DNA of 34,554 bases from Burkholderiales bacterium. GTDB taxonomy: Bacteria; Pseudomonadota; Gammaproteobacteria; Burkholderiales; Burkholderiaceae_C. The stretch covers positions 1 through 34,554 of the forward strand of contig JABEVE010000070.1 of NCBI GenBank assembly GCA_013044035.1, written 5' to 3'. Below, piece after piece: positions 4,724-33,177 of this stretch. Positions within the stretch are counted from its first letter, which is position 1; each line of letters starts with the position of its first letter. The translations under genes and the position numbers were made by a program. The notes under the pieces were generated by a model, which searched no databases, was not told where the DNA came from, and saw nothing but the letters and a program-made list of their open reading frames with translations.

Positions 4724-4800
<77 letters not shown>

Positions 4801-4817: not shown

Positions 4818-4904
4818 GTGCGCAGAAGTGCAAAAACCCCTAGGAATTCAACAACCTAGGGGTTTTTTCTTGTCTGGGACGTGCGCAGGCGTGCGCAGAA
4901 ATGC
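4818..4904. repeat. Pair of 14-bp direct repeats flanking the terminator
   Basis: GTGCGCAGAAGTGC at 4818-4831 and GTGCGCAGAAATGC at 4891-4904 differ at one position and flank the terminator; another GTGCGCAGG sits at 4881. They lie between the tRNA and the integrase, where recombinase or directionality-factor sites are expected. Their function is an inference. Confidence 0.55.
4832..4867 (+). terminator. Rho-independent terminator after tRNA-Val
   Basis: A perfect 13-bp inverted repeat AAAAACCCCTAGG / CCTAGGGGTTTTT with a 10-nt loop (AATTCAACAA), followed by a T run. It lies 32 nt after the tRNA and would end its transcript, insulating the integrase region. The A-tract on the other side makes it potentially bidirectional. 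Confidence 0.9.
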
Positions 4905-4922
4905 GTGGACAGCCGCGACAAG

Positions 4923-4986
4923 TTGACGGTATCTTTGACGGTATATCGGATCCCGACAGGGCAGATACCGTCAAAAATACCGTCAA
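4923..4986. repeat. 22-bp inverted repeats built from tandem TTGACGGTAT units, upstream of integrase
   Basis: The left arm 4923-4944 consists of TTGACGGTAT, two bases, then TGACGGTAT again; the right arm 4965-4986 is its reverse complement with one mismatch, across a 20-bp spacer. This gives four copies of GACGGTAT in 64 bp. The array ends 13 bp before the integrase start codon. Its symmetry fits arm-type integrase binding sites or an operator for the integrase gene; if transcribed it would also form a long hairpin over the leader of int. Confidence 0.75.
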
Positions 4987-4999
4987 CCAGCACACAGGC

Positions 5000-6205
5000 A
5001 TGGCACTGACACTCGCTCAGATCAAAGCCGAGAAGCCGTCGGACAAACCTATCAAACTGTCCGATGAGCATGGCATGTATTTGCTCGTCAACCAGTCAGG
5101 CAAATACTGGCGCTTCGACTACAGGTTCGCGGGTAAACGCAAAACGATGTCCATCGGTGTATTTCCAGTCGTTGGGCTGGCACAGGCAAGGCATGCCTTG
5201 TATGAAGCACGAGCGAAGTTGGCTGCGGGTGAGGACCCTATGGGCGAAAAGAAATCCGCTGCGGCCACAGCCGAGAAAAAGAACGCCTGCGATTTTGAAT
5301 CAACGGCTAGGGAGTGGATCAAGAGCAAGAAAGAAACGTGGGTGCCGGAACACGAGTCGCGCGTGCGCCGATCACTGGAGAATTGGGTCTTCCCTTGGCT
5401 TGGATTCAAGCCGGTCGGGGAGATCAATGCGGTCGACCTGCTATCGGTAGCGCGGCGCATCGAGGGTGCAGGAAGGCTCGAAACAGCGCACCGCGTTGTA
5501 TCGGTCTGCGGCCAGGTCTTCCGGTATGCCATAGCCTGCGGGAAGGCGCGCCACAACCCGTCTCCGGACTTGCGAGGTGCTCTGAAGCCCTACAAATCCA
5601 AGCCAAGACCCGCCTTCACTTCAAGAGATCGGCTGGCTGACGTCCTTTGTGCCATCGAAGACTACGCCGGAAATTACCAGACCCGCCTGGCCTTGAGGAT
5701 GCTGCCTATGGTCTTCGTCCGGCCCAAGGAAATTCGGCTGATGCAGTGGGGAGAGATTGATCTGGATGACGGAATTTGGTCAGTCCCAGGCAACAAAATG
5801 AAGGGAGGATTGCCACATATGGTGCCGCTGTCGCGCCAGGCGGTCCAGCTTCTTCAAGAGATCAAGCCGCTGTCTGGAGTGTCAGGAGAGGCCGGGTTTG
5901 TATTTCCTGGCGTGCGCGACAAAAGACGTCCACTCAGCAACATGACACTCAACGCGGCGCTGCGACGGCTCGGATTCAGTACGCAAGATGAGATCACATC
6001 ACACGGGTTTCGCACGGTGGCATCAACATTCCTGCACGAGATGGGTTTCCCGCCTGATGTTATCGAGACACAGCTCGCACACAAAATCGGGGGGGTTCGT
6101 GGGGTCTATATGCGCAGTCAGTACCTGGATCAGCGCAAAGCCATGATGCAGTCGTGGGCAGATTTTCTGGATACTGTCAAGAACAGCGAGCGCAAGCCTG
6201 CTTAG
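5000..6205 (+). CDS. Tyrosine integrase (tRNA-Val-associated island)
   Basis: A 401-residue phage/island-type tyrosine recombinase. An N-terminal arm-binding DUF4102-like region (LSDEHGMYLLVNQSGKYWRF, about 20-40) is followed by a core-binding SAM-like domain (about 100-200) and a catalytic domain with Arg241 in VRPKEIR, His335-x-x-Arg338 in TSHGFRTVAS, His361 in QLAHK and nucleophile Tyr370 in GVYMRSQYL. All catalytic residues are present, so it may be active. The ATG at 5000 is preferred over an upstream in-frame ATG at 4901 because that stretch is the repeat array. It points away from the tRNA and its 3' end overlaps the convergent AlpA-like gene by 29 nt. Confidence 0.93.
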   Translation: MALTLAQIKAEKPSDKPIKLSDEHGMYLLVNQSGKYWRFDYRFAGKRKTMSIGVFPVVGLAQARHALYEARAKLAAGEDPMGEKKSAAATAEKKNACDFESTAREWIKSKKETWVPEHESRVRRSLENWVFPWLGFKPVGEINAVDLLSVARRIEGAGRLETAHRVVSVCGQVFRYAIACGKARHNPSPDLRGALKPYKSKPRPAFTSRDRLADVLCAIEDYAGNYQTRLALRMLPMVFVRPKEIRLMQWGEIDLDDGIWSVPGNKMKGGLPHMVPLSRQAVQLLQEIKPLSGVSGEAGFVFPGVRDKRRPLSNMTLNAALRRLGFSTQDEITSHGFRTVASTFLHEMGFPPDVIETQLAHKIGGVRGVYMRSQYLDQRKAMMQSWADFLDTVKNSERKPA

Positions 6206-6434
6206 CTTCCGCTGCGTCAAGCCATGAGCGCACTTTCTGGCGGCGCCAACGGCTGGCGACTCCAATTTTCACTGGCGACGGAAAATCGTCCTCGCGAATC
6301 AACTGGTAGATCTTCGAACGAGACAGGCGCATGAGTTCCTGAAGATCTTCGATGCTCAGCAACTCAATGTCGAGGTTCCGCCCTGGAGTGCTTGCGTGTG
6401 TTTGTGCGTCCATAGGTGTATTGAATCTCGACAT
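6177..6434 (-). CDS. AlpA-family helix-turn-helix regulator
   Basis: A short (about 85 aa) MerR/AlpA-type DNA-binding protein. The core LLSIEDLQELMRLSRSKIYQ, followed by FPSPVKIGVASRWRRQKVRSW, is the classic AlpA winged-helix layout in which a recognition helix precedes a wing with a conserved arginine. AlpA proteins of P4-like elements control integrase or excision genes and their genes usually lie beside int, as here (convergent, overlapping 29 nt). The start is uncertain: ATG codons at 6434 and 6413 are both possible and neither has a proper ribosome binding site. Confidence 0.85.
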   Translation of the reverse strand: MSRFNTPMDAQTHASTPGRNLDIELLSIEDLQELMRLSRSKIYQLIREDDFPSPVKIGVASRWRRQKVRSWLDAAEAKQACARCS

Positions 6435-6752: not shown

Positions 6753-8359
6753 TGCTCCCCGATGGCCACCCAAATTCCCCCATCTGTGGCCACCTCAAAT
6801 TCCCCCACCCTGGCCACGGCGCGATGAGGCGCTGAAGCCGGCGATTTCGCCGGCGGCCTGAGGTCTGGCAGGACGTTACTTTCTCCCCCTCACCGCAGGG
6901 GGGCAAGGAGTGAACGTCTTGAAGCCGCATTTGCAAACGACGATCTGGACGCTGCTGAGGAACGACACCAGCCAGCACGAGATCGCCCGCGTGACGGGGA
7001 TCGATCGCAAGACGATCCGTGCCTACGCGAAGCGCTTTGCCGCCGCCGAAGCGGCAAACTCCCCCAGGGCGGCCACCGACTCGCCAGGGCGAACTGCTCC
7101 ACCCCGGCCACCGGCTCCGGCGGCCACCTCGGTATCGGCCTGCGAGCCGCACCGGGCCTTCATCGAGGCGCAGTTGCGACTGCAGCGCAACGCCACGGCG
7201 ATCTACCAGGACCTGGTCGACCAGGTCGCCTTCGCCGGCGCCTACAACTCGGTCAAGCGCTTCTGCGCCCGCCTGCGCCGCAAGGAGCCGGAGCAGTTCG
7301 ACCGCCTGAGCTTCCAGCCCGGCGAGGAGATGCAGGTCGACTACGGCGAGGGCGCCCCCACGCTCGTGCCCGGCACCGACCGCTATCGCAAGCCCAGGCT
7401 GTTCGTGGCCACGCTGCGCTACTCGCGCAGCAGCTTTCGGCGCGTCGTGTGGAAGTCCAGCCAGCAGGTCTGGGCCGAGCTGCATGAGCAGGCCTGGAGA
7501 TACTTCGGCGGCTCGTGCCACTACGTCGTGCTCGACAACCTGAAGGAAGGCGTGCTCAAGCCCGACCTGTACGAGCCTCGGCTCAACGCGGTGTACGCGG
7601 CGACGCTGGCCCATTACAGCGTCGTCGCCGACCCGGCCCGCGTGCGCGACCCCAACCGCAAAGGGACGGTCGAGAACGCGATCGGCCACACCCAGGCCAC
7701 GGCCTTGAAGGGTCTCGACGACAGACTGAGCCTGGCCGACTTCGATTGGCGCTTCAACCCCAAGCTGCCGCGCCAAGCTTGCTTCGCGTTGCACGCGCTG
7801 AAGTTTATCGGCGAAGGCGCCAACGCGATGATCATCGGCAGGCCAGGTACCGGCAAAAGCCATGTCGCCAAGGCCGTGGCCTACCAGGCCACGCTGCAGG
7901 GCTTTGATGTGCGCTATGTCGAGGCCGACACCGAGTTCGCCAAGTTCGCTCTGGGCAGCGCCGCCGAGCAGGCCGCACTGCTGCGCGCCTACGTCGAACC
8001 CGATCTGCTCGTCCTCGACGATCTGTTCCTGGCCCGCCGCATCCGCGACGCCGCCGCCGAACTGCTGCAGACCGTCGTGCATCAGCGCTACAAACATCGC
8101 CGCTCCATCGTCGTCACCTCCAACCGCGTCGTGCAGGACTGGGGCAAATACCTCGGCGACGCCACCATGGCCACCACCATCCTCGACCGGCTGATGCACC
8201 GCGCAGCCATGCTGGAGTTCGAAGGCAAGAGCTACAGGCTCAAAGAAGCAGCCGCACGCATCGCCCTCAACACCACCGCCGACGCATAATCAACCCGTCC
8301 TGCACTGGGGGAGTTTGGGTGGCCACGGGTGGGAGAATTTGAAGTGGCCATCGGGGGCA
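6753..8359 (+). mobile_element. IS21-family insertion element, internally deleted (about 1.6 kb)
   Basis: The left end begins TGCTCCCCGATGGCCAC and the right end, read on the minus strand, TGCCCCCGATGGCCAC. Both ends carry further copies of the unit TGGCCAC-N2-AAATTC-CCCA (left at 6763 and 6787; right within about 8320-8350), the multiple-terminal-repeat design of IS21 elements, and the element starts with TG and ends with CA. IS21 elements are about 2-2.5 kb; this one is about 1.6 kb because istA and istB have been joined by deletion. No target-site duplication is apparent: the flanks (GCGATC left, AACCAA right) differ, which suggests rearrangement after insertion. Confidence 0.85.
6910..8289 (+). 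CDS. Fused IstA-IstB transposition protein (IS21 family)
   Basis: One 459-codon frame joins two normally separate proteins. Residues 1 to about 267 are IstA: an N-terminal helix-turn-helix (ARVTGIDRKTIRAYAKRF), then a DDE integrase core with Asp144 (MQVDYGEG), Asp209 (VVLDNLKEG) and Glu255 (GTVENAIG). From about residue 268 the sequence is IstB, an AAA+ helper ATPase with Walker A GRPGTGKS at 310-317, Walker B LLVLDDL and the usual TTILDRLMHRAAMLEFEGKS end. The C-terminal third of IstA and the first part of IstB are missing, without loss of frame. A GTG start follows a GGGGGCAAGGAG ribosome binding site. Whether the fusion still works in transposition is unknown; it may be an inactive deletion derivative. 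Confidence 0.85.
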   Translation: MNVLKPHLQTTIWTLLRNDTSQHEIARVTGIDRKTIRAYAKRFAAAEAANSPRAATDSPGRTAPPRPPAPAATSVSACEPHRAFIEAQLRLQRNATAIYQDLVDQVAFAGAYNSVKRFCARLRRKEPEQFDRLSFQPGEEMQVDYGEGAPTLVPGTDRYRKPRLFVATLRYSRSSFRRVVWKSSQQVWAELHEQAWRYFGGSCHYVVLDNLKEGVLKPDLYEPRLNAVYAATLAHYSVVADPARVRDPNRKGTVENAIGHTQATALKGLDDRLSLADFDWRFNPKLPRQACFALHALKFIGEGANAMIIGRPGTGKSHVAKAVAYQATLQGFDVRYVEADTEFAKFALGSAAEQAALLRAYVEPDLLVLDDLFLARRIRDAAAELLQTVVHQRYKHRRSIVVTSNRVVQDWGKYLGDATMATTILDRLMHRAAMLEFEGKSYRLKEAAARIALNTTADA

Positions 8360-25424: not shown

Positions 25425-26471
25425 TCACGTCCCCCACCCCATGCGCAGCGCCGCCCGCCAGAACCCACGCGCATTCGCCAGCACCGGACGCGGCAACACG
25501 GAGAAGTTCATGCCGGAAAACGTCGCCCGCATCGCCTCCTCGAAATAGGCCGCGCCGCCCCCGGCCAGGATCAGGTGATCGACGCGGACCTTGTTCTGTT
25601 GGCGTTGCAACACATCGGCCATGCGCCGCACCACCTGCAAGGCGCCGCGCCGCATGGTCTGCTGGTACTCGGAGAAGTCGATGACACCCACCCCGACGAA
25701 CGACAACTTGCCCCGATCCAGTCCGTCCTCGATGGTCTGCAGGTCCAGAGGCGCATTCGGATGCTTGCGAATCACGTCTGACGAAACCGCGCGGAGCAAC
25801 TCACTCACCCCGCCGTCAAAAGCGCCGGAGAGGTCGGGCACGGTCACATGGCCACGCATGGCGAACCAGTCGAAGGTCTTGTAGCCCGGATCGGCCACGA
25901 TCACCACATCCGTATCCGCAGGCGGCGCGGTCAGGCGCGAGCGCCAATCGGTCATTGCGCCGAATGGCTGCGGCATGACGCGCACCGTCTTGACTTCCAC
26001 CAGGGCCGCATCACGGCCGAACGCGGCGCGCAGGCTCAACGGCACCGGCACCAGAAAAGGCTTGCGCATCTCCTGGCTGAGCGATTCGCGCAGCTTGCCG
26101 AAGGAGTACACCGGCAGGCCGACAGCCAGAGCATCGACACGCTCAAGCATCACCCCCAGCTCCTTGAAGGCCATGTGCAGGGCGCCGGCGATCAGCGCCC
26201 GGTAGGCCTTGCTGTGAACGTAGTCGTCGAGCAAAGTGCGGCCGTAGATCCCGGTCGACGGCCCGACGGCAAAGTGCGTGCCATCGACATCGACCAGAAC
26301 GTTATCCGTCTGGCCAGCGCTGGACATCGCCTGGTAGTAATTCAGGTCGGTGATCTCGTGCGCGACCGACGGGATGATGACGTTGTGCCCCGGCCCGTTG
26401 TCGGCCGACCAGACCGCCTTGGTGTTGCCGTAGCCCACATCGAGGCCCATGTTGAAGCGTTGCTCTGTCAT
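25425..26471 (-). CDS. ParM/StbA-like actin-family segregation protein (PRTRC protein D-like)
   Basis: A 348-residue actin-like ATPase. The phosphate 1 loop is GLDVGYGNTKAVW with Asp11, phosphate 2 is VIVADPGYKTFDWF, and the adenosine loop is LILAGGGAAYFEEAM. The subfamily looks like PRTRC system protein D / StbA, which segregates plasmids or large mobile elements. The other PRTRC proteins are not seen, so it is probably part of a simple two-gene partition pair with the small gene upstream. Its presence indicates that this part of the window derives from a plasmid or an element with a plasmid-like stage. Confidence 0.85.
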   Translation of the reverse strand: MTEQRFNMGLDVGYGNTKAVWSADNGPGHNVIIPSVAHEITDLNYYQAMSSAGQTDNVLVDVDGTHFAVGPSTGIYGRTLLDDYVHSKAYRALIAGALHMAFKELGVMLERVDALAVGLPVYSFGKLRESLSQEMRKPFLVPVPLSLRAAFGRDAALVEVKTVRVMPQPFGAMTDWRSRLTAPPADTDVVIVADPGYKTFDWFAMRGHVTVPDLSGAFDGGVSELLRAVSSDVIRKHPNAPLDLQTIEDGLDRGKLSFVGVGVIDFSEYQQTMRRGALQVVRRMADVLQRQQNKVRVDHLILAGGGAAYFEEAMRATFSGMNFSVLPRPVLANARGFWRAALRMGWGT

Positions 26472-26495: not shown

Positions 26496-26807
26496 TCACA
26501 GCCCAGCGAAGGCGTTGTCGCCTGCACTGGATAAGAAGTCGTTGAGATGCGCCGATGCCGTGTGTTGCGGCTCACCAACTCGTGCGTCATCCCGCGTCGG
26601 CGCCAGCGGCGTCGCCTGGCTGCGAACGACAAGAGGTGCGATAGGGGCCTCGCTGTACAATGCGCGTATGCCAGTGACGAGCGCATGTCTTGCGGCGCGT
26701 GCACGGTGTTGCTTGCCCTGCCCATCCGGCAGACTGCTTAGATGGTCGTAAAGCGGGCGCAACTCAGGATCGTCTTCGGTAATCAAAAGTGTGATCTGGA
26801 TAGCCAT
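26496..26807 (-). CDS. Putative partition adaptor (StbB/ParR-like)
   Basis: A 103-residue protein starting MAIQITLLITEDDPELRPL. The first half, with a strand followed by helices (QHRARAARHALVTGIRALYS), could be a ribbon-helix-helix-like DNA-binding part; the second half is flexible and ends with DFLSSAGDNAFAGL, which could contact the actin. It lies 24 nt upstream of the ParM-like gene in the same direction. Identification rests mostly on location and size. Confidence 0.6.
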   Translation of the reverse strand: MAIQITLLITEDDPELRPLYDHLSSLPDGQGKQHRARAARHALVTGIRALYSEAPIAPLVVRSQATPLAPTRDDARVGEPQHTASAHLNDFLSSAGDNAFAGL

Positions 26808-27124
26808 AAGTTATCGTTACGCGTTATTCGTCGGCAACAACCGAACACTTGAGAATTCAAGGGACGTTGCGGTGCGGTTTTTGGCGAAATTGCTGGAAAA
26901 CCAGGGAAGAATTCGGCACTCATCCGTAGTGAGTATTGTTTCCCCCCGATCCTGGCATGCGCGAGCAAAAGCGCAAGCGAAACGGCCAGGATTCAACCCA
27001 CCGCATCGCCTGCTCGATCGGTAGCATCCTGACTATCCGTCACCAGACGGTCTGCTTACCCATGCCGCACCAGCGGAACGAAGCAGCAGATTCATCGAGG
27101 CCATGCGCCTCCATCCAGCAGGTC
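26808..27124. other. Non-coding stretch upstream of the partition pair
   Basis: About 320 bp with no supportable gene. It contains a short palindrome, CTTGA-GAAT-TCAAG at 26848-26861, and lies directly in front of the StbB/ParR-like gene, the place where a centromere-like site or promoter is expected. I did not see clear iterons. Confidence 0.3.
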
Positions 27125-27146
27125 AACCGCCCAGGCGGTTTTTTTT
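27125..27146 (+). terminator. Rho-independent terminator
   Basis: AACCGCC and GGCGGTT form a tight stem (effective loop CCAG) followed by a run of eight T residues including the stem end. It would end plus-strand transcription just ahead of the structured region. What it terminates is unclear, as no supported plus-strand gene precedes it. Confidence 0.75.
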
Positions 27147-27381
27147 GAAACCCTGCGCACAAAACACTCAAGAACCCTGAGTGTTGCAAAACCCAAGCAA
27201 ATTCGCGCCTCACAGGCCGATTGAGACACCCTTTGGGTCTACTGACGAAAAGTTTCCATCGCCCCAAGACGGGCAAGAAGGCGGCTGATGCCGCGCTTGG
27301 CAAGATCAACGTCGGGGACTCGCCGCCCCCGTGCATGCCGTTGCTGCCCCGCCTAGATGCCGGGTAAGTGGACATGCACGA

Positions 27382-27605
27382 GCCTTGCAGCCTGAGGGCT
27401 GAAGGCAGGCCGCCTGAGGGCGGTTATTCCAGGAGTCTCGGCTGATCCCCCCGAATAAGCGGGATCCGAATGGGCGCGTCATAGCCCCGGTCTCTCCTGA
27501 GGGAGAGCGACCCTGTGCCGTGAGGGCAGGGCAGTGGTAGCTGAGACGCAAGCTACTGCTGAACACGGGACTCCTGAAGAAGGGGCGTCCTCCCGTATAC
27601 GGGAG
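27382..27605 (+). ncRNA. Candidate structured non-coding RNA (chain of seven hairpins)
   Basis: Consecutive hairpins fill this stretch. 27382-27406: GCCTT-G-CAGCC / GGCTG-AAGGC with loop TGAG. 27410-27423: CCGCC-TGAG-GGCGG. 27444-27466: GATCCC / GGGATC. 27489-27512: GGT and CTCTCC-TGAG-GGAGAG, then ACC. 27511-27531: CCCTG / CAGGG. 27532-27561: CAGTGGTAGC / GCTACTGCTG, 10 pairs with two wobbles. 27568-27590: GGAC / GTCC. 27590-27605: CTCCCG-TATA-CGGGAG. Three hairpins share the same TGAG loop closed by C-G. No conserved reading frame explains the region. The design recalls large structured RNAs of mobile elements such as HEARO/omega RNAs of IscB, but no iscB gene is nearby, so that link is speculative. 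Strand is assumed from the downstream gene direction. Confidence 0.55.
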
Positions 27606-27637
27606 CCACGGTATGACTGCGGACCTTACTTGCAGCG

Positions 27638-27769
27638 ATGAAGGTGCTCATCGGACAGCACCAAAGACAGGCCCAGCGCATCAGCGCCGTGCCGGTGGCT
27701 CTTTCAGAAGACGAATCGTGGGTCAAAAGCTGCGCCATTGATGCGCGGCGCGCTTTGCGGATGGCATAA
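27638..27769 (+). CDS. Possible 43-residue protein after the structured region
   Basis: A short frame, MKVLIGQHQRQAQRISAVPV continuing ALSEDESWVKSC, starts 33 nt after the last hairpin and ends with IDARRALRMA. The protein is basic at both ends with an acidic middle. No ribosome binding site is clear and no family was recognised. It may be a remnant of a longer gene or a true short gene controlled by the structured leader. Confidence 0.3.
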   Translation: MKVLIGQHQRQAQRISAVPVALSEDESWVKSCAIDARRALRMA

Positions 27770-27804
27770 CTTGTGGGATTCATAAACCCCATGAGAGATT
27801 AGCC

Positions 27805-29037
27805 ATGCCAGACCGCGCCCTTGAACTCCAGTACAAACGCCAAGCCATCCGCGCCAGCGTTGATCGAGACGGCGTGTGGATCAGCGGCGACGATGCAGCG
27901 ACGGCACTGGGCTACAAATCGTCCAAAGATCCCATTGCGCGCTTGCCCGAGAACGAGAAGTCCCTGCGCCAGATTGGAGGCAAAGGCGTGAGGATGCGCG
28001 TTCTCAGTCCTGACGGCGTGCTGCGGCTGGCTGGTGGAGCAAGAATGGGCGGTGCCGATGGCTTCCTGAAGTGGTTTCAGGAGCAGGCCATGCCCGCGCT
28101 GGGCGAGACGGCCCTGGAGCAAGGCCATACGGGCACCGAATTGGTGATAGCCGAGCCTGTACTCACGCCTGTCGCCCAAGCGGTCCGCACCTTCCTCTTT
28201 GAGACCATGCCCGTGCGCGCGCAGATGGATGACAAGGGCGAAATCCTGTTCAACGCCAACGACGTGTGCGAGGCGCTGGAACTGAGCAATCCGCGCAAAG
28301 CATTGGACGATCACGTTGCTCCGGATGACGTAACCCGCAGTGACACCATCGACTCCATGGGTCGAATTCAGCAAGCCAACTACGTCTACTTACCCGGCCT
28401 CTACGCCCTCGTCTTCGGGAGCAAGAAGGAGGCCGCACGCCGTTTCAAACGCTGGGTGACGCACGACGTGCTGCCCTCGATCCAGAAGACGGGCAGCTAC
28501 AGCCTGCACGACCACACCCATGCAGCCGACGAAACCCCCGCCCTGCCTGACACCAGCGAGCGCGCCATACTGCAGCGCGCCGCCAACCTCGGCAGCCTGA
28601 TGCTGTCATTGCCTGGGGCAGACGACGCCACGCAGCAACGCCAGCGCGAAGACGCGCAGATCCAAGCCCGCCAGGCGCTGGTGCATATCCAGGAAGCCGC
28701 CGAAGGTCTCAAGGGCCTGCGTCTCCAAGTCACCTTTCAAGGCGGACTCGACCGTCCGCAAGCCCAGGCCATGCCGGGCGATCACGGCGACGCACCCATT
28801 CAGGGCGCTGCGGCAGACAAAGCCATGGCCGGGCGCACCTACGTTCTCGACTTCCATCGCGGCGTCGAGCGTCCCCACATTCGACCCCTGCGCCATGACG
28901 AACGCATCATCAAGGCCGACCGTGAGGGCGTCAAATTCCTCGCGAATCAGGCGCGGCTCGGGTTGGAAGACTGGCACGACCTGGAGAACTGGGCGCAGCG
29001 CAAGGTGCGGGCGGAAGAAAACCGGCGCGACAGATAG
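27805..29037 (+). CDS. Tandem Bro-N antirepressor-like protein (paralog 1)
   Basis: A 410-residue protein with two Bro-N domains, found in phage and mobile-element antirepressors. The first (about 15-95) has VWISGDDAATALGYKSSKDP and GADGFLKWFQEQAMPAL; the second (about 125-230) has ILFNANDVCEALELSNPRKA, LPGLYALVFGSKKEAARRFK and WVTHDVLPSIQKTGSY. The C-terminal 180 residues contain a helical part (DATQQRQREDAQIQARQAL) and a charged end without a recognised domain. Bro proteins bind DNA and often modulate phage repressors or stress responses. It follows the structured RNA region and precedes the MYG1-like gene by 37 nt. Confidence 0.85.
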   Translation: MPDRALELQYKRQAIRASVDRDGVWISGDDAATALGYKSSKDPIARLPENEKSLRQIGGKGVRMRVLSPDGVLRLAGGARMGGADGFLKWFQEQAMPALGETALEQGHTGTELVIAEPVLTPVAQAVRTFLFETMPVRAQMDDKGEILFNANDVCEALELSNPRKALDDHVAPDDVTRSDTIDSMGRIQQANYVYLPGLYALVFGSKKEAARRFKRWVTHDVLPSIQKTGSYSLHDHTHAADETPALPDTSERAILQRAANLGSLMLSLPGADDATQQRQREDAQIQARQALVHIQEAAEGLKGLRLQVTFQGGLDRPQAQAMPGDHGDAPIQGAAADKAMAGRTYVLDFHRGVERPHIRPLRHDERIIKADREGVKFLANQARLGLEDWHDLENWAQRKVRAEENRRDR

Positions 29038-29073
29038 ACGGATCCTCTTGATGTCGACAGACGTCCCAAACAA

Positions 29074-29970
29074 GTGAGAATAATCGTTTCCCACGTCGGA
29101 CTGCCCTCACGGCACATCGACGACACCATCGGCGTCGCGCTCCTGTGCCACGACTACACAAAATCGCGCGTCAAGTGGCGCCACATGCAAGTGGCTCCAC
29201 AGGATGAACATGCCATCGCAAGGCTGCGCGCGAGGGGCGCGGCCTTCGTCGATGTTGGCGACGTTTACGACCCACGACACGGACAGTTCGATCACCATCA
29301 GGACGCGGCACTCGATTGCGCTGCCGTCCTGGTGGCAGAGCACCTGGGCTATAGACCGTTCTGCCAGTCTTTGGCCGCCGTCTTCATGACCGCCAAAGAC
29401 CTCCGCGGGTTCGCTGCGGCGGTTGCAGAGACGGGCCACAAGCCAAGCGCGGATGCAGCGGAAGCGGAGATGGCGCTTTGCGCCGTCACCATCACACCTC
29501 AATTCGCAGCGTGGGTCGCTTGGAATCTGATCTTATGCCAGCCGACCACGACCTACAGCGACCTCCTGGTCGGCCTCTGGGAGGGCGCTCCGAACCCCGT
29601 CAGGGCCGAGTGGAATGGACTCAGAGCGTCGAAAGCTGCCACCGAATCCAACGCCCTGGCATCGGTGCGGGTGATCGCCGTCTCCGGCCTTCGGATCGGG
29701 TGTTCGGACACCCACGTCGTGCCGGCTCCACTGGCATTCAAGAGCTTGGGAGTCCAGGTCATGGTGAGTGTGAACGCCGCCAACGCCGCGCAAACATCCA
29801 TCACCAAAGACACCGCCTCGGCGGCAACGGCGAATGTCGACTTGAGCAGGGCCGCGAGCGCCGCCGGGGTGAAGCAGATTTTTCTGCACAACTCAGGGTT
29901 CATCGTCGTGCTCGAATCTCCCGCAGGAGCAATCGACGTAGAGGCGGTGGTTGGGGCCTGCCTGGCGTGA
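29074..29970 (+). CDS. MYG1-like / DHH-type metal-dependent hydrolase
   Basis: A 298-residue protein whose first third resembles MYG1 (UPF0160) proteins: HIDDTIGVALL near residue 15 and FVDVGDVYDPRHGQFDHHQD with the DHH motif at 73-75. MYG1 proteins are predicted 3'-5' RNA exonucleases or phosphohydrolases. The second half is more diverged and ends with an Ala/Val-rich segment (FIVVLESPAGAIDVEAVVG). The GTG start is the first that keeps the N-terminal strand; no strong ribosome binding site is seen. It lies between two bro genes, an unusual context for this family. Confidence 0.65.
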   Translation: MRIIVSHVGLPSRHIDDTIGVALLCHDYTKSRVKWRHMQVAPQDEHAIARLRARGAAFVDVGDVYDPRHGQFDHHQDAALDCAAVLVAEHLGYRPFCQSLAAVFMTAKDLRGFAAAVAETGHKPSADAAEAEMALCAVTITPQFAAWVAWNLILCQPTTTYSDLLVGLWEGAPNPVRAEWNGLRASKAATESNALASVRVIAVSGLRIGCSDTHVVPAPLAFKSLGVQVMVSVNAANAAQTSITKDTASAATANVDLSRAASAAGVKQIFLHNSGFIVVLESPAGAIDVEAVVGACLA

Positions 29971-30032
29971 GTCGTGGGGGCACATCCTTCGGGGGATGCC
30001 CGCGCGGAGACTGCATGTGGAATGGCGTGGCG

Positions 30033-30296
30033 GCGTATCGACCAGCCTGGACCCAATGACGGCTCCGGCATGACGCCCGAAACGCGCGGATTTTTCGGGC
30101 CGAAAGAGCCGAGTAGGGCCAAGAGCCTTGATTTTGCTGGGTCGCAACCTCGCCATAGCCAACGCAGATCCCGCTGCGCTGGCCATGGCGGGCATCCGAA
30201 AATGCCATCACGGTGCGCGTCTTTCAGCCTGAAAGACCCCGCTGCCCGGACAAGAATCGGTCAGGAGCCGCGGTTGCGGCGATCACTGGAGATTCC
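30033..30296 (+). repeat. Conserved hairpin leader, copy B (upstream of bro paralog 2)
   Basis: A 264-bp leader related over its whole length to 32304-32574. The conserved core is the inverted repeat CGCCATAGCCA (30151-30161) and TGGCCATGGCG (30180-30190) with one mismatch and an 18-nt loop. The short open frame that copy C encodes is damaged here: its ATG is ATA and one A is missing after the hairpin. The rest of the 326-bp gap holds no other gene. It ends with GGAGATTCC before the bro start codon. Confidence 0.75.
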
Positions 30297-31424
30297 ATGG
30301 ACATCATCCCGTTTCCATTCGAAGACAAAGCCGTGCGCGTCGTGCGCGACGAAAGCGGCGAACCGCTGTTCGTCGGCAAGGATGTGTGTGACGCGCTGGG
30401 GTATGCGGGCCACGCAGGAGCGATAAGGCGCCATTGCAAGGGGACGCTGAAACGTCGACCACTTCAAACCGATGGAGGCATTCAAGAGATGCTCGTCCTC
30501 ACCGAGCCCGACGTGATGCGCCTGCTCGTGCATAGCAAGCTGCCGGCGGCGAAGCGGTTCGAGGCGAACATCATCGCCGCGCTCCACCCATTAGCTGTTG
30601 ATCGCCTGCTGTCCCGGCACGTCGTCGAAGTTGACACCCAGCGAATGGACAGCGGGACAGGTCGTCAATCCACCCGGAAGATGGCATTAACCCAAGAAGA
30701 ATCCCATCGTGATGCACACAATCCGTGCGCAAAGGACCAAGCCATGCAAGTTGTGCCCTACCAATTTGAAAGCCAGGAAGTTCGCGTCGTGCAAGACGAG
30801 AACGGCGAACTGCTGTTCGTGGCGGCCGATATTTGTGCCGCATTGACCATCAACAACAGCCGCATGGCCATGGACCGCCTGGATGCAGACGAAAAGGGTG
30901 TCAGTTCAATTGACACAACCGGCGGACCCCAAGACATGACCGTCGTCAACGAATCCGGCCTCTACAACCTCATCCTCGGAAGCCGCAAACCGCAGGCCAA
31001 GGCATTCAAGCGCTGGGTGACGCACGAAGTTCTGCCCGCCATCCGCCGCACCGGCCAGTACGCCGCACCGCAAACCGAGCCGGCGAAGCTGGGCGTCGAC
31101 ACCGACTGGCTCGCCCGGTCGATGCACAACGCCCAGAAGGTCATCCAGATGGCGGCCGGCCGCGTCGGCATGGCGGTGGTGGCCGAAGAGACGCCCGACT
31201 TCTCCCATCCCGACATTGCCATGGGGCTGGCGGGTCTCATGTTCGCGCAGCAGCGCTTTCTGGTCGAGATGGAATCCCTGGAGTCCGCCAGGATCCGCGC
31301 GCTGCACCTCAAGGAGCGGGTCGTCGATCTCCGGCTGGATGACTGGGCTGAGCGGTTTCTCGGAGAACTCAACCGGGTGCAGGTGGTGCAGATCATGCAA
31401 GCCGCGACCCGCAAGCTCGCGTGA
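30297..31424 (+). CDS. Tandem Bro-N antirepressor-like protein (paralog 2)
   Basis: A 375-residue protein with two Bro-N units. Unit 1 (about 1-110) has VRVVRDESGEPLFVGKDVCD and an EPDVMRLLVHSKLPAAKRFE end. Unit 2 starts at an internal methionine (residue 150, MQVVPYQFESQEVRVVQDEN) and has VNESGLYNLILGSRKPQAKA followed by FKRWVTHEVLPAIRRTGQY. The C-terminal 130 residues, with DTDWLARSMHNAQKVIQMAA and DDWAERFLGELNRVQVVQIM, are helical. ATG 30297 has GGAG nine bases upstream. Unit 2 and the part after it are nearly identical to paralog 3, so the two genes arose by recent duplication. Confidence 0.85.
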   Translation: MDIIPFPFEDKAVRVVRDESGEPLFVGKDVCDALGYAGHAGAIRRHCKGTLKRRPLQTDGGIQEMLVLTEPDVMRLLVHSKLPAAKRFEANIIAALHPLAVDRLLSRHVVEVDTQRMDSGTGRQSTRKMALTQEESHRDAHNPCAKDQAMQVVPYQFESQEVRVVQDENGELLFVAADICAALTINNSRMAMDRLDADEKGVSSIDTTGGPQDMTVVNESGLYNLILGSRKPQAKAFKRWVTHEVLPAIRRTGQYAAPQTEPAKLGVDTDWLARSMHNAQKVIQMAAGRVGMAVVAEETPDFSHPDIAMGLAGLMFAQQRFLVEMESLESARIRALHLKERVVDLRLDDWAERFLGELNRVQVVQIMQAATRKLA

Positions 31425-31538
31425 ACCGGCATGGCCATCGGCATCACGAAGGCGGGAATCGTGGCAAACGGGACCCCTTGCGTCAGCCGGTGAGCGGTGG
31501 CGGACCCATGCGCTTTCGCTTCAGACCCGAATCGGTGA

Positions 31539-31672
<134 letters not shown>

Positions 31673-31712
31673 ATCCCATGGCTCAGATTTACGTTGCGCG
31701 TCAGCGCGCGAA

Positions 31713-31880
31713 GTGGCTCAGAATTCGGTTGCGCTTGACACCGTCGCCGGACTGTCCCTGTGGAAGGGCACGGGCCTCGGCCTCGTCGCGGTGTTCCTGG
31801 TCTGGCTTGTGTTGCAGGGCTTCGCCTGGTTCCTGCTGTCCTTGTCGTTCAATGCAGACGAGGAGGATGAGTCTGGATAG
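31713..31880 (+). CDS. Small single-span membrane protein (55 aa)
   Basis: A GTG-started frame reads MAQNSVALDTVAGLSLWKGT, then a hydrophobic helix GLGLVAVFLVWLVLQGFAW plus FLLSLSF, and an acidic tail NADEEDESG. The alternation of short polar N terminus, one membrane helix and acidic end is typical of small membrane proteins. No clear ribosome binding site is seen, and another frame from ATG 31678 overlaps it, so confidence is limited. A similar tiny membrane protein follows 55 bp later. Confidence 0.45.
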   Translation: MAQNSVALDTVAGLSLWKGTGLGLVAVFLVWLVLQGFAWFLLSLSFNADEEDESG

Positions 31881-31935
31881 GCGCTTGCATGGCCCAGCAC
31901 TCACACTAAAATAGGACCAACTTGAAGGAACCGCC

Positions 31936-32055
31936 GTGTCGATCACGACTGGGATTTATGTTCTATGCGCCGTCGCTGTCATCAGCACCGGCGCATTTAC
32001 TGGCTTTGTCGCTTGGCTGTCGCACAACACCAAGGGCAAGCGCAGGCACGATTAA
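31936..32055 (+). CDS. Small membrane protein (39 aa)
   Basis: A GTG-started frame reads MSITTGIYVLCAVAVISTGA followed by FTGFVAWLSHNTKGKRRHD: one membrane helix with a basic end. A good AAGGAA signal lies 5 nt upstream, and a strong terminator follows 15 nt after the stop. The clean gene unit (ribosome binding site, frame, terminator) makes it likely to be real. Function unknown. Confidence 0.65.
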   Translation: MSITTGIYVLCAVAVISTGAFTGFVAWLSHNTKGKRRHD

Positions 32056-32070
32056 GATCGGGAATCAGCA

Positions 32071-32106
32071 AAAAAAGGGGGCGCTGCAACGGGCGCCTTT
32101 TTTTTT
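32071..32106 (+). terminator. Rho-independent terminator after small membrane genes
   Basis: GGCGC (32080-32084) pairs with GCGCC (32093-32097), flanked by an A run before and nine T residues after. It closes the transcription unit of the two small membrane proteins and separates it from the leader of bro paralog 3. Confidence 0.85.
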
Positions 32107-32303
32107 GTGCCCACGCGCACCGTAGCAGGCTAGAGAAGCCGAGAAGTCGTTCCATCGCGCACCTGCGCCTATCCAAACCGGCAGACGCCGACGCGTTTTC
32201 CAGGCTGTTTTTTCGGCAAGATCACGGTCTTGCCGCAGCAACCAATGGGCGAACGCGACCGCCACACCCCCCGCTCGGGTTGCAACATCGCGCGCTGGGT
32301 CGG
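32107..32303. other. Gap before leader copy C
   Basis: No gene is supported here. An 8-bp perfect inverted repeat, CGGCAAGA and TCTTGCCG at 32213-32234 with a 6-nt loop, follows a T run (CTGTTTTTT). It may be part of a promoter or terminator region. Confidence 0.3.
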
Positions 32304-32574
32304 GCGTATCGACCAACCCGGACCGGACCCTATCCCGGCTCCGGCATGGCGACCTAAAACGCGCAAATCTTTCGGACCGGAAGAGCCGAATAGGGCCAAG
32401 AGCCTTGATTTTGCTGGGTCGCAACCTCGCCATGGCCAACGCGATTCCCGCTGCGCTGGCCATGGCGGGCATCCGAAAAATGCCATCCCGGTGCGCGCCT
32501 TTCAGCCCGAATGGTCGCGCCGGCCGGGTCACAATCGGCTGGCATCTGCGCTTGCGGCGCGACTGGAAGCCGTG
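32304..32574 (+). repeat. Conserved hairpin leader, copy C, with short open frame
   Basis: The best preserved copy of the leader. CGCCATGGCCA (32428-32438) and TGGCCATGGCG (32457-32467) form a perfect 11-bp stem with an 18-nt loop that itself can close a GCG/CGC pair. The ATG inside the stem (32432) starts a 47-codon frame, MANAIPAALAMAGIRKMPSR..., whose TGA overlaps the start codon of the bro gene (TGATG, 32573-32577). This makes a leader peptide with coupled translation a reasonable idea. Similar peptides occur at the start of Ash/Icd-like proteins of P4-type elements (tentative). Confidence 0.7.
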
Positions 32575-33177
32575 ATGCGGACGATTCCATTCCCACGCGA
32601 GGACGAAGCCATGCAAGTTGTGCCCTACCAGTTCAAAACCAAGAGGTCCGCGTCGTCCAGGACGAGAGTGGCGAGCCGCTGCTCGTGGCTGCAGATGTTT
32701 GCGCAGCCTTGGAACTGCCGGAAACCTACAAGGCGGTCGCACGCCTGGACGATGGCGAAAAGGGTCTGCGTTCAATGCAAACCCCTGGCGGCCCCCAAGA
32801 CAACCGTCGTCAACGAATCCGGACTCTACAACCTCGTCCTCGGCAGCCGCAAACCACAAGCCAAGGCATTCAAGCGCTGGGTGACGCACGACGTGCTGCC
32901 CGCCATCTGCCGCACCGGCCCGTACGCCGCGCCGCAAACAGAGCAACCTGGCAAAGAGCCGGCGAAGCTTGGAGTCGACACCGACTGGCTCGCCCGGTCG
33001 ATGCACAACGCCCAGAAGGTCATCCAGTTGGCGGCTGGTCGGGTTGGGCTGGCGGTGGTCGCCGAAGAGACGCCCGACTTCTCTCATCCCGACATTGCCA
33101 TGGGGCTGGCGGGCCTGATGTTCGCTGCGGCTGCATGTGCGCGGCAGAGGGTCGAGATAAGAAACGACGCGTCATGA
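32575..33177 (+). pseudogene. Bro-N antirepressor-like gene, scrambled by two compensating frameshifts (paralog 3)
   Basis: The gene aligns with the second Bro-N unit of paralog 2. A one-base loss near 32642 shifts the frame, and a two-base loss near 32803 (ACAACC against ACATGACC) restores it. The 53 codons between are read out of frame, replacing most of the Bro-N core, whose original sequence (QEVRVVQDESGEPLLVAADV) is intact in the other frame. After 32803 the protein is again normal (VNESGLYNLVLGSRKPQAKA) until it diverges at GLMFAAAACARQRV and ends early. Relative to paralog 2 it also lacks the first Bro-N unit. A 200-residue protein could still be made, but not a normal Bro protein. Confidence 0.8.

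What the first reader, a model, noticed from the sequence alone, without database searches (positions are those of the whole stretch)
27382..27605. Chain of seven hairpins with repeated TGAG loops: candidate unknown structured RNA
About 220 bp consist almost wholly of consecutive strong stems, three of them closed by the same C-TGAG-G loop, one of 10 pairs with two wobbles and one 16-bp palindrome. Wobble pairs and loop conservation suggest RNA rather than DNA selection. It sits in a mobile-element region between a terminator and a bro gene, with no protein-coding explanation. Size, orientation and multi-stem design recall HEARO/omega RNAs of IscB elements, but no HNH/RuvC gene is present, which would make it an orphan or a new class.
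Basis: partly seen in the sequence, partly recalled or inferred. Interest (0 to 1): 0.75.

Follow-up and report, generated by a model that had tools for sequence, protein, structure and literature searches.

The report
New structured RNA in mobile elements
A stretch of bacterial DNA without a recognisable protein gene carries an intricately folded RNA whose shape is kept by evolution in several mobile genetic elements, but which matched no family in the RNA catalogue searched and whose job is still unknown.

Summary
Segment 27382-27605 folds far better than chance. The window copy is only 59-63% identical to them, yet pairing is kept: 97.7% of 303 cells pair, and 21 of 63 pairs changed on both sides (shuffled mean 5.5; slid controls 1-3). 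A pseudoknot joins the longest hairpin's loop to the 3' linker. Covarying hairpins outside the given coordinates extend the RNA to about 27314-27662. No Rfam family reaches its gathering score. HEARO/omega RNA and IscB were not found (genome-wide controls silent). Strong model matches occur in 4 of 399 family genomes, own included. A hairpin-rich stretch with a jointly conserved fold, not matched by the model, lies at the equivalent place in two Polaromonas plasmids, before integrase-type genes. Function is unknown: I slightly favour a free-standing RNA of the mobile element over a long leader of bro. It is an apparently undescribed structured RNA, not an omega RNA.

The parts
27314..27329 (+). 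HA: 5' flanking hairpin GGGG/CCCC
   Evidence: 20 of 20 cells paired in 5 sequences; 1 of 4 pairs changed on both sides (hand-chosen arms)
27331..27379 (+). HB: outer helix GTGCATG (27331-27337) with CATGCAC (27373-27379), enclosing an inner stem
   Evidence: 5 pairs counted: 24 of 25 cells paired, 4 of 5 changed on both sides (hand-chosen arms); formed in the MFE of 27310-27705
27382..27406 (+). P1 hairpin
   Evidence: 3 of 9 pairs changed on both sides
27409..27424 (+). P2 hairpin
   Evidence: 2 of 6 pairs changed on both sides
27431..27440 (+). P3, 5' strand AGGAGTCTCG
   Evidence: pairs with 27566-27575 in the MFE; the homologs offer GTCTC with GGGAC at a shifted place (read); the shared part is invariant, so there is no covariation support
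27444..27466 (+). P4 hairpin (an inner hairpin is present in L031, L032 and L065, absent here and in L102)
   Evidence: 1 of 5 pairs changed on both sides
27472..27487 (+). P5 hairpin
   Evidence: 1 of 5 pairs changed on both sides; the innermost counted pair is not formed here
27492..27507 (+). P6 hairpin
   Evidence: 2 of 7 pairs changed on both sides; the outermost counted pair (27491/27508) is not formed here
27511..27531 (+). P7 hairpin with GTGA (GNRA-type) loop; GCAA in the four homologs
   Evidence: 3 of 4 outer pairs changed on both sides
27532..27561 (+). P8 long hairpin; its loop takes part in the pseudoknot
   Evidence: 6 of 12 pairs changed on both sides
27545..27549 (+). pseudoknot strand 1, GACGC in the P8 loop, pairs with GCGTC 27585-27589
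   Evidence: GGCGA with TCGCC in the four homologs (read); 1 of 5 pairs counted as a double change, a second (G-C to A-U) is hidden by a one-base gap in the alignment
27566..27579 (+). CGGGACTCCTGAAG: longest invariant block; 3' strand of P3 or, alternatively, a local CGGG-ACT-CCTG hairpin
   Evidence: identical in 5 of 5 sequences; the local hairpin is the choice of RNAalifold
27585..27589 (+). pseudoknot strand 2, GCGTC
   Evidence: as for strand 1
27590..27605 (+). P9 hairpin (the 16-nt palindrome)
   Evidence: 2 of 4 counted pairs changed on both sides
27609..27626 (+). P10 hairpin
   Evidence: 15 of 16 cells paired in 4 sequences; 1 of 4 pairs changed on both sides
27643..27662 (+). P11 hairpin GGTGCT-CATCGGAC-AGCACC
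   Evidence: 24 of 24 cells paired in 4 sequences; 5 of 6 pairs changed on both sides
27125..27146 (+). intrinsic terminator upstream, with T run
   Evidence: conserved in homologs
27165..27183 (+). dyad CACTCA-AGAACCC-TGAGTG between the terminator and the RNA
   Evidence: AACCCTGAGTG exact in L031, L032, L065, L102, L123, L124; a role as operator or promoter is inference
25425..26471 (-). actin-like (ParM/ALP) gene of the module
   Evidence: ALP_N and MreB-like_C; 71% identical in G032
26496..26807 (-). small gene upstream of the actin-like gene
   Evidence: ORF, no Pfam match
27805..29037 (+). bro (Bro-N antirepressor-like) gene downstream
   Evidence: Pfam Bro-N; matches the gene downstream of the RNA in L031 at E 4e-21

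Best explanation
The segment is the core of an apparently undescribed structured RNA of at least 350 nt, read from the + strand, carried in a module of integrated mobile elements: actin-like ParM gene and small gene on one strand; terminator, short dyad, RNA and bro gene on the other. Shown: the conserved secondary structure, the pseudoknot, the strand, the synteny. Inferred: transcription starts in the stretch between the terminator and HA; the RNA folds into a multibranched core closed by the invariant GTCTC/GGGAC helix and locked by the P8 loop pseudoknot; it works as a free-standing RNA by offering the invariant strand CGGGACUCCUGAAG to a partner (a protein or another RNA of the element), with P3 and the local CGGG-ACU-CCUG hairpin as mutually exclusive states, in the service of upkeep or mobility of the element. 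The confidence given is for the free-standing mechanism; that it is a conserved structured RNA I hold at about 0.95.
For: Structure: 97.7% of 303 cells paired, 21 of 63 pairs with double changes, 0 of 500 shuffles as high, slid versions 1-3. RNAalifold chose its own structure with 20 of 74 pairs double-changed and a covariation term of -1.54. Consensus energy z -9.4 against 60 column shuffles for the core (none of 60 as low), -2.7 and -2.6 for the 3' and 5' flanks. The P11 stem is almost wholly replaced yet fully paired. Strand: 18 G-U against 2 A-C cells. Independence from its neighbours: the RNA core is intact where the actin-like gene lacks its N-terminal part (L102, L065), where only a fragment of it shows among ORFs of 130 aa or more (L124), and where bro appears cut short (L065). 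The window RNA, 59-63% identical to the others, keeps its shape beside a bro protein matching at 30% identity over the best stretch.
Against: No transcript was seen. No terminator-like site was found between the RNA and bro in the window, which allows co-transcription. The RNA has the same orientation as the next gene at the seven syntenic places where I read it (window, L031, L032, L123, L124, L117, L118). No sigma-70 promoter was found by the consensus scan. Partner and switch are conjecture; P3 itself does not covary. Distribution is narrow, and the sequences form in effect two groups (the window against the rest, 83-93% alike among themselves), so many double changes reflect one divergence. 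The covariation terms of the flank alignments alone do not beat column shuffles.
Confidence: 0.45

Rival explanations
1. The RNA is the long 5' leader of the downstream mobile-element gene (bro here; integrase-type genes after the comparable stretch in Polaromonas plasmids) and controls its expression in cis, by attenuation or by access to the ribosome binding site.
For: Same strand as the next gene in the window, L031, L032, L123, L124, and for the comparable stretch in L117 and L118. No terminator-like site before bro in the window. The invariant TCCTGAA is complementary to TTCAGGA just upstream of the bro start in L031 and L032 (read). Two exclusive pairings of the invariant strand.
Against: About 140 nt separate P11 from the bro start in the window. 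A weak terminator-like site lies between RNA and bro in L031 (3 sites found in the scanned region, 1.3 expected by chance). The TTCAGGA stretch is absent before bro in the window and is what a Shine-Dalgarno site would give anyway. The RNA is kept although bro appears cut short in L065.
Confidence: 0.37
2. An orphan HEARO/omega-type guide RNA that serves an IscB- or TnpB-like nuclease encoded elsewhere.
For: Comparable size and multistem plan; a mobile-element setting.
Against: No HEARO match at E<=10 over the segment or in the genome; no RRXRR protein found in the genome. The controls rang nowhere. TnpB was not searched for.
Confidence: 0.05
3. A DNA-level element (origin, centromere or recombination site) whose hairpins act in single-stranded DNA, without an RNA.
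For: It lies next to a partition-like gene; the complementary strand also folds well (z -3.34).
Against: The + strand is favoured: MFE -114.8 against -101.6, and G-U cells outnumber A-C cells 18 to 2; GNRA-type loops in P7.
Confidence: 0.06
4. A decayed group II intron or other known ribozyme.
For: Multidomain hairpin chain in a mobile region.
Against: No Rfam match at gathering score; no intron family among the weak matches; the structure is maintained, not decayed.
Confidence: 0.02

Closest known systems
GOLLD, ROOL and OLE ornate large bacterial RNAs (PMC12286853, abstract and section list seen)
   Same: large, multistem bacterial RNAs; phage or mobile-element setting of GOLLD and ROOL is recalled, not from a call
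   Different: no Rfam match at gathering score nor among the weak matches, assuming the library holds them; this RNA is smaller (recalled sizes); no evidence of multimers
HEARO / omega RNA of IscB (RF02033; PMC9755519, passages seen)
   Same: several hundred nt, 5' of a mobile-element gene, multistem
   Different: no RF02033 match, no IscB found, downstream gene is bro
Long structured leaders (riboswitch or T-box type; recalled)
   Same: upstream of and co-oriented with a gene, alternative pairings possible
   Different: larger, some 140 nt from the gene, no Rfam riboswitch match
Hairpin-rich stretch of Polaromonas plasmids (L117 3745-3430 and L118 3230-2930, minus strand)
   Same: equivalent place in an actin-like gene module, co-oriented with the next gene, jointly conserved fold (z -4.6, 0 of 100 shuffles as low), CGGGACGC block
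   Different: model R1 gives at most 9.1 bits there; likeness of its CGGGAC block to the invariant block is within chance (156 and 620 of 1000 shuffles as good); next gene is integrase-type

Membership tests
HEARO / omega RNA (RF02033) | match to the covariance model | tested here: not met
   not among the 10 matches at E<=10 over 27100-27800; none in the genome (controls silent)
HEARO / omega RNA (RF02033) | adjacent IscB-type RuvC/HNH gene | tested here: not met
   downstream gene is Bro-N; no RRXRR found in the genome (controls silent)
HEARO / omega RNA (RF02033) | 5' guide stretch and RNA-guided nuclease activity | not testable with these tools
   needs transcripts and biochemistry
GOLLD / ROOL / OLE | match to the Rfam models | tested here: not met
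   no match at gathering score in the window, L031 or L032
GOLLD / ROOL / OLE | RNA-only multimer | not testable with these tools
   needs mass photometry or cryo-EM
Group I / II introns | Rfam intron models; intron-encoded protein nearby | tested here: not met
   no model match; no reverse transcriptase among the 20 window ORFs scanned with Pfam, of 147 ORFs of 80 aa or more listed
Conserved structured RNA (general) | compensatory changes across homologs beyond shuffled and slid controls | tested here: met
   21 of 63 pairs double-changed, shuffled 5.5, slid 1-3; 20 of 74 by RNAalifold's own structure
Conserved structured RNA (general) | transcription | not testable with these tools
   no expression data
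cis-regulatory leader | co-orientation with a downstream gene and no terminator between | tested here: inconclusive
   co-oriented; no terminator-like site before bro in the window but a weak one in L031

The most novel reading that the evidence does not exclude
The RNA is the founding member of a class of pseudoknotted RNAs belonging to the maintenance module of Burkholderiales mobile elements: a fast-changing but shape-conserved RNA placed between an actin-like segregation operon and a recombination or antirepressor gene (Thiomonas islands, Polaromonas plasmids, perhaps G031), which acts as an RNA machine or scaffold for segregation or integration and can outlive the actin-like gene.
Probability: 0.2. 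Interest if true: 0.87.

Novelty: new member of a known kind. Interest (0 to 1): 0.62.

Why it matters
Few bacterial RNAs of this size and intricacy are known, and some that were first seen only as conserved folds later proved to be guides of RNA-guided nucleases (HEARO) or to form RNA-only cages (GOLLD, ROOL). A compact RNA with a pseudoknot, an invariant 14-nt strand and three genomic copies in one named strain (T. delicata DSM 16361) is directly testable. If its place beside an actin-like segregation gene is functional, it would tie a structured RNA to the upkeep of integrated mobile elements.

Tried and rejected
Rejected: HEARO/omega RNA, introns and other Rfam families. No coding explanation found (minus-strand ORFs only). 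Searches without homologs: plasmids and phages by blastn with the window segment or with the homologs. One search gave 85 plasmid records; the 20 listed cover 8% of the query, mostly in traI, and were taken as chance. Viral contigs by pattern and by the actin-like protein (33 stretches, none a relative) gave nothing, nor did a Polaromonas-type pattern in 140 family genomes. Early blastn hits in 7 other genomes of 150 and 4 others of 369 were short; I read 4 of these 11 and saw no RNA beyond the match. Of the 27 matches I accepted 4 and took the other 23, of 20-54 query bases, as chance without reading them. Two 20-bit model matches, in G014 and G560, cover P4-P5 only and were taken as chance.

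Pattern scan of genome contigs: 49 stretches; model R1 confirms 6 of 49 (L062, L065, L067, L077, L102, and L089 over 58 bases at a contig end). G678 is the same sequence as L102 (100% over 1500 bases), so it is not an extra homolog.

Deep kinship with the Polaromonas stretch by the CGGGAC block: not significant. R1 gives at most 9.1 bits in L117-L119 and 5.1 in L120-L122. In the joint fold of L117/L118 the energy is significant, but the covariation term is not: about 17 of 100 shuffles are at least as good (the sign of that term is reversed, as one search shows). The hand check of their helices verified the places of two helices, H1 (2 of 8 pairs double-changed) and H2 (1 of 6); for H3 and H4 the script found other occurrences of the short arms, so I do not count them. 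The stretch of L118 tried first, 3850-3500, is not structured beyond chance (z -1.35), nor is 3230-2930 taken alone (z -0.92). Cupriavidus L119 showed no clear counterpart. The G031 gene after the stretch has no Pfam match; that it is integrase-like is my reading only.

In the hand count of flanking stems rows were left out: L032 from HC; L102 from P10, P11 and P12 (its contig ends there); the window also from P12, where it has no clear equivalent. HC pairs badly (17 of 20 cells), so I do not rely on it.

On re-checking: pairwise identities, the gene after the Polaromonas and G031 stretches, and the identity of G678 with L102 were added.

Full report
What was claimed and what is there. The sequence and fold agree: z -4.35, 0 of 200 shuffles as stable, and a closing helix AGGAGTCTCG/CGGGACTCCT that makes the middle hairpins arms of a multibranched loop. 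The + strand folds better than the - strand, which is itself better than its shuffles. A longer stretch, 27310-27705, has z -3.5.

Homologs. blastn of the segment found nothing convincing in plasmids, phages, 150 family genomes or 369 class genomes. The way in was synteny. The actin-like gene next door (window 25425-26471, minus strand) has a 71% identical relative in the same-genus genome G032, and the sequence upstream of that relative holds a diverged copy of the RNA at the matching place. G032 has three copies and G610 one. A pattern taken from the invariant block, run over the genome-contig collection (84,980 species), gave 49 stretches, of which model R1 confirms 6: three in Thiomonas delicata DSM 16361, two in one betaproteobacterial bin (one only 58 bases at a contig end), one in another bin. 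G032 appears to be T. delicata, since the contig lengths agree. In 399 family genomes R1 gave strong matches in 4 (G000 itself, G032, G610, and G678, which equals the second bin) and 20-bit matches in 2; in 340 class genomes only G000. Both searches used stricter filters and scored 5 or 6 candidates per genome in the rows shown, so absence is not proven.

Covariation. Alignment A6 holds five homologs; the window is 58.8-63.1% identical to the other four, which are 83.1-92.8% alike. With a hand-written structure of 63 pairs in 11 helices, 97.7% of 303 cells pair, 21 pairs have a change on both sides (shuffled mean 5.5, 0 of 500 as high) and sliding the 3' partners leaves 1-3. RNAalifold, given no structure, found 20 double-changed pairs among 74, and the consensus energy lies 9.4 standard deviations below 60 column shuffles. 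Caveat: the rows form two groups, so many double changes stem from one split; L031 adds independent ones in P7 and P8, L032 in P9 and P11. On the + strand G-U cells outnumber A-C cells 18 to 2. The P8 loop can pair with the 3' linker in all five sequences (GACGC/GCGTC here, GGCGA/TCGCC in the others; read).

Extent. Alignments of the flanks show further hairpins. P11 is paired in 24 of 24 cells with 5 of 6 pairs double-changed, P10 has 1 of 4, HA 1 of 4, HB 4 of 5 (arms chosen by hand). P12 is clear in L031, L032 and L065 (3 of 5 pairs double-changed) but not in the window. The RNA therefore runs from about 27314 to at least 27662. The flank folds are better than column shuffles (z -2.7 and -2.6), although their covariation terms alone are not.

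Setting. The island lies by a tRNA gene (4724-4797) with a tyrosine recombinase (4901-6205), an IS21-type frame and a carbon monoxide dehydrogenase cluster. The module is: actin-like gene and small gene leftwards; terminator (27125-27146), dyad (27165-27183), RNA and bro rightwards. In L102 and L065 the actin-like ORF lacks its N-terminal part, in L124 only a fragment shows among the longer ORFs, and in L065 bro appears cut short, while the RNA core is intact. In two Polaromonas plasmids (actin-like proteins 35% and 32% identical) a similar order occurs, with an intrinsic terminator and GAGTG-type block and then a hairpin-rich noncoding stretch before genes with a phage-integrase N-terminal domain. 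In G031 (32%) the order looks alike, but the next ORF has no Pfam match. The two Polaromonas stretches share 70.8% identity over 140 bases and fold jointly (z -4.6, 0 of 100 shuffles as low), though the covariation term is not significant. They are not matched by R1, and the likeness of their CGGGAC block to the invariant block is within chance. Whether they are the same RNA is open.

Comparison with the known. Rfam gives nothing at gathering score in this region of the window or in L031 and L032 and only weak matches at E<=10. HEARO is not met, and no IscB was found. Ornate RNAs such as GOLLD, ROOL and OLE (PMC12286853, abstract seen) are likenesses of kind, not of family. Seven literature searches listed no paper whose title, or start of abstract as shown, describes this RNA; most listings were capped. 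In PMC2829063 on the Thiomonas genome (passages seen) the words noncoding and antirepressor do not occur.

Mechanism. Shown: a conserved structured RNA on the + strand, at a conserved place in mobile elements. Inferred: that it is free-standing rather than a leader (0.45 against 0.37), that the invariant strand is the contact surface, and that P3 and the local hairpin are alternative states. The choice between free-standing RNA and leader needs transcript ends.

Noticed in passing
window 26940-27146: A second hairpin-rich stretch on the same strand, ending in the intrinsic terminator (local z -4.0 and -4.4 with 40 shuffles); aligned in four homologs, joint fold z -3.0. A GCGGAAYGA motif is shared with L031, L065, L102, L123, L124 and a Polaromonas plasmid (L117 4032, minus strand), not with L032. 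Possibly a separate small RNA.
   Followed up: partly
L117 3745-3430 and L118 3230-2930 (minus strand); L120 1265-1600: Noncoding hairpin-rich stretches at the equivalent place of related modules; z taken singly -3.25, -0.92 and -2.68.
   Followed up: partly
L102 946-1926, L065 2325-3305: The actin-like ORF lacks its N-terminal part in both metagenome bins, apparently with the end of the small gene fused on; the RNA core beside it is intact.
   Followed up: partly
L124 about 5628-6378: The terminator and dyad block occurs twice in the third T. delicata island, suggesting a local duplication.
   Followed up: no
window 27805-33177: Three frames with Bro-N domains in a row (27805, 30213, 32230), with stretches that look alike before the second and third.
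   Followed up: no
window 6910-8289: One frame joins IS21 transposase and IstB-like parts, apparently a fused or remnant IS21.
   Followed up: no
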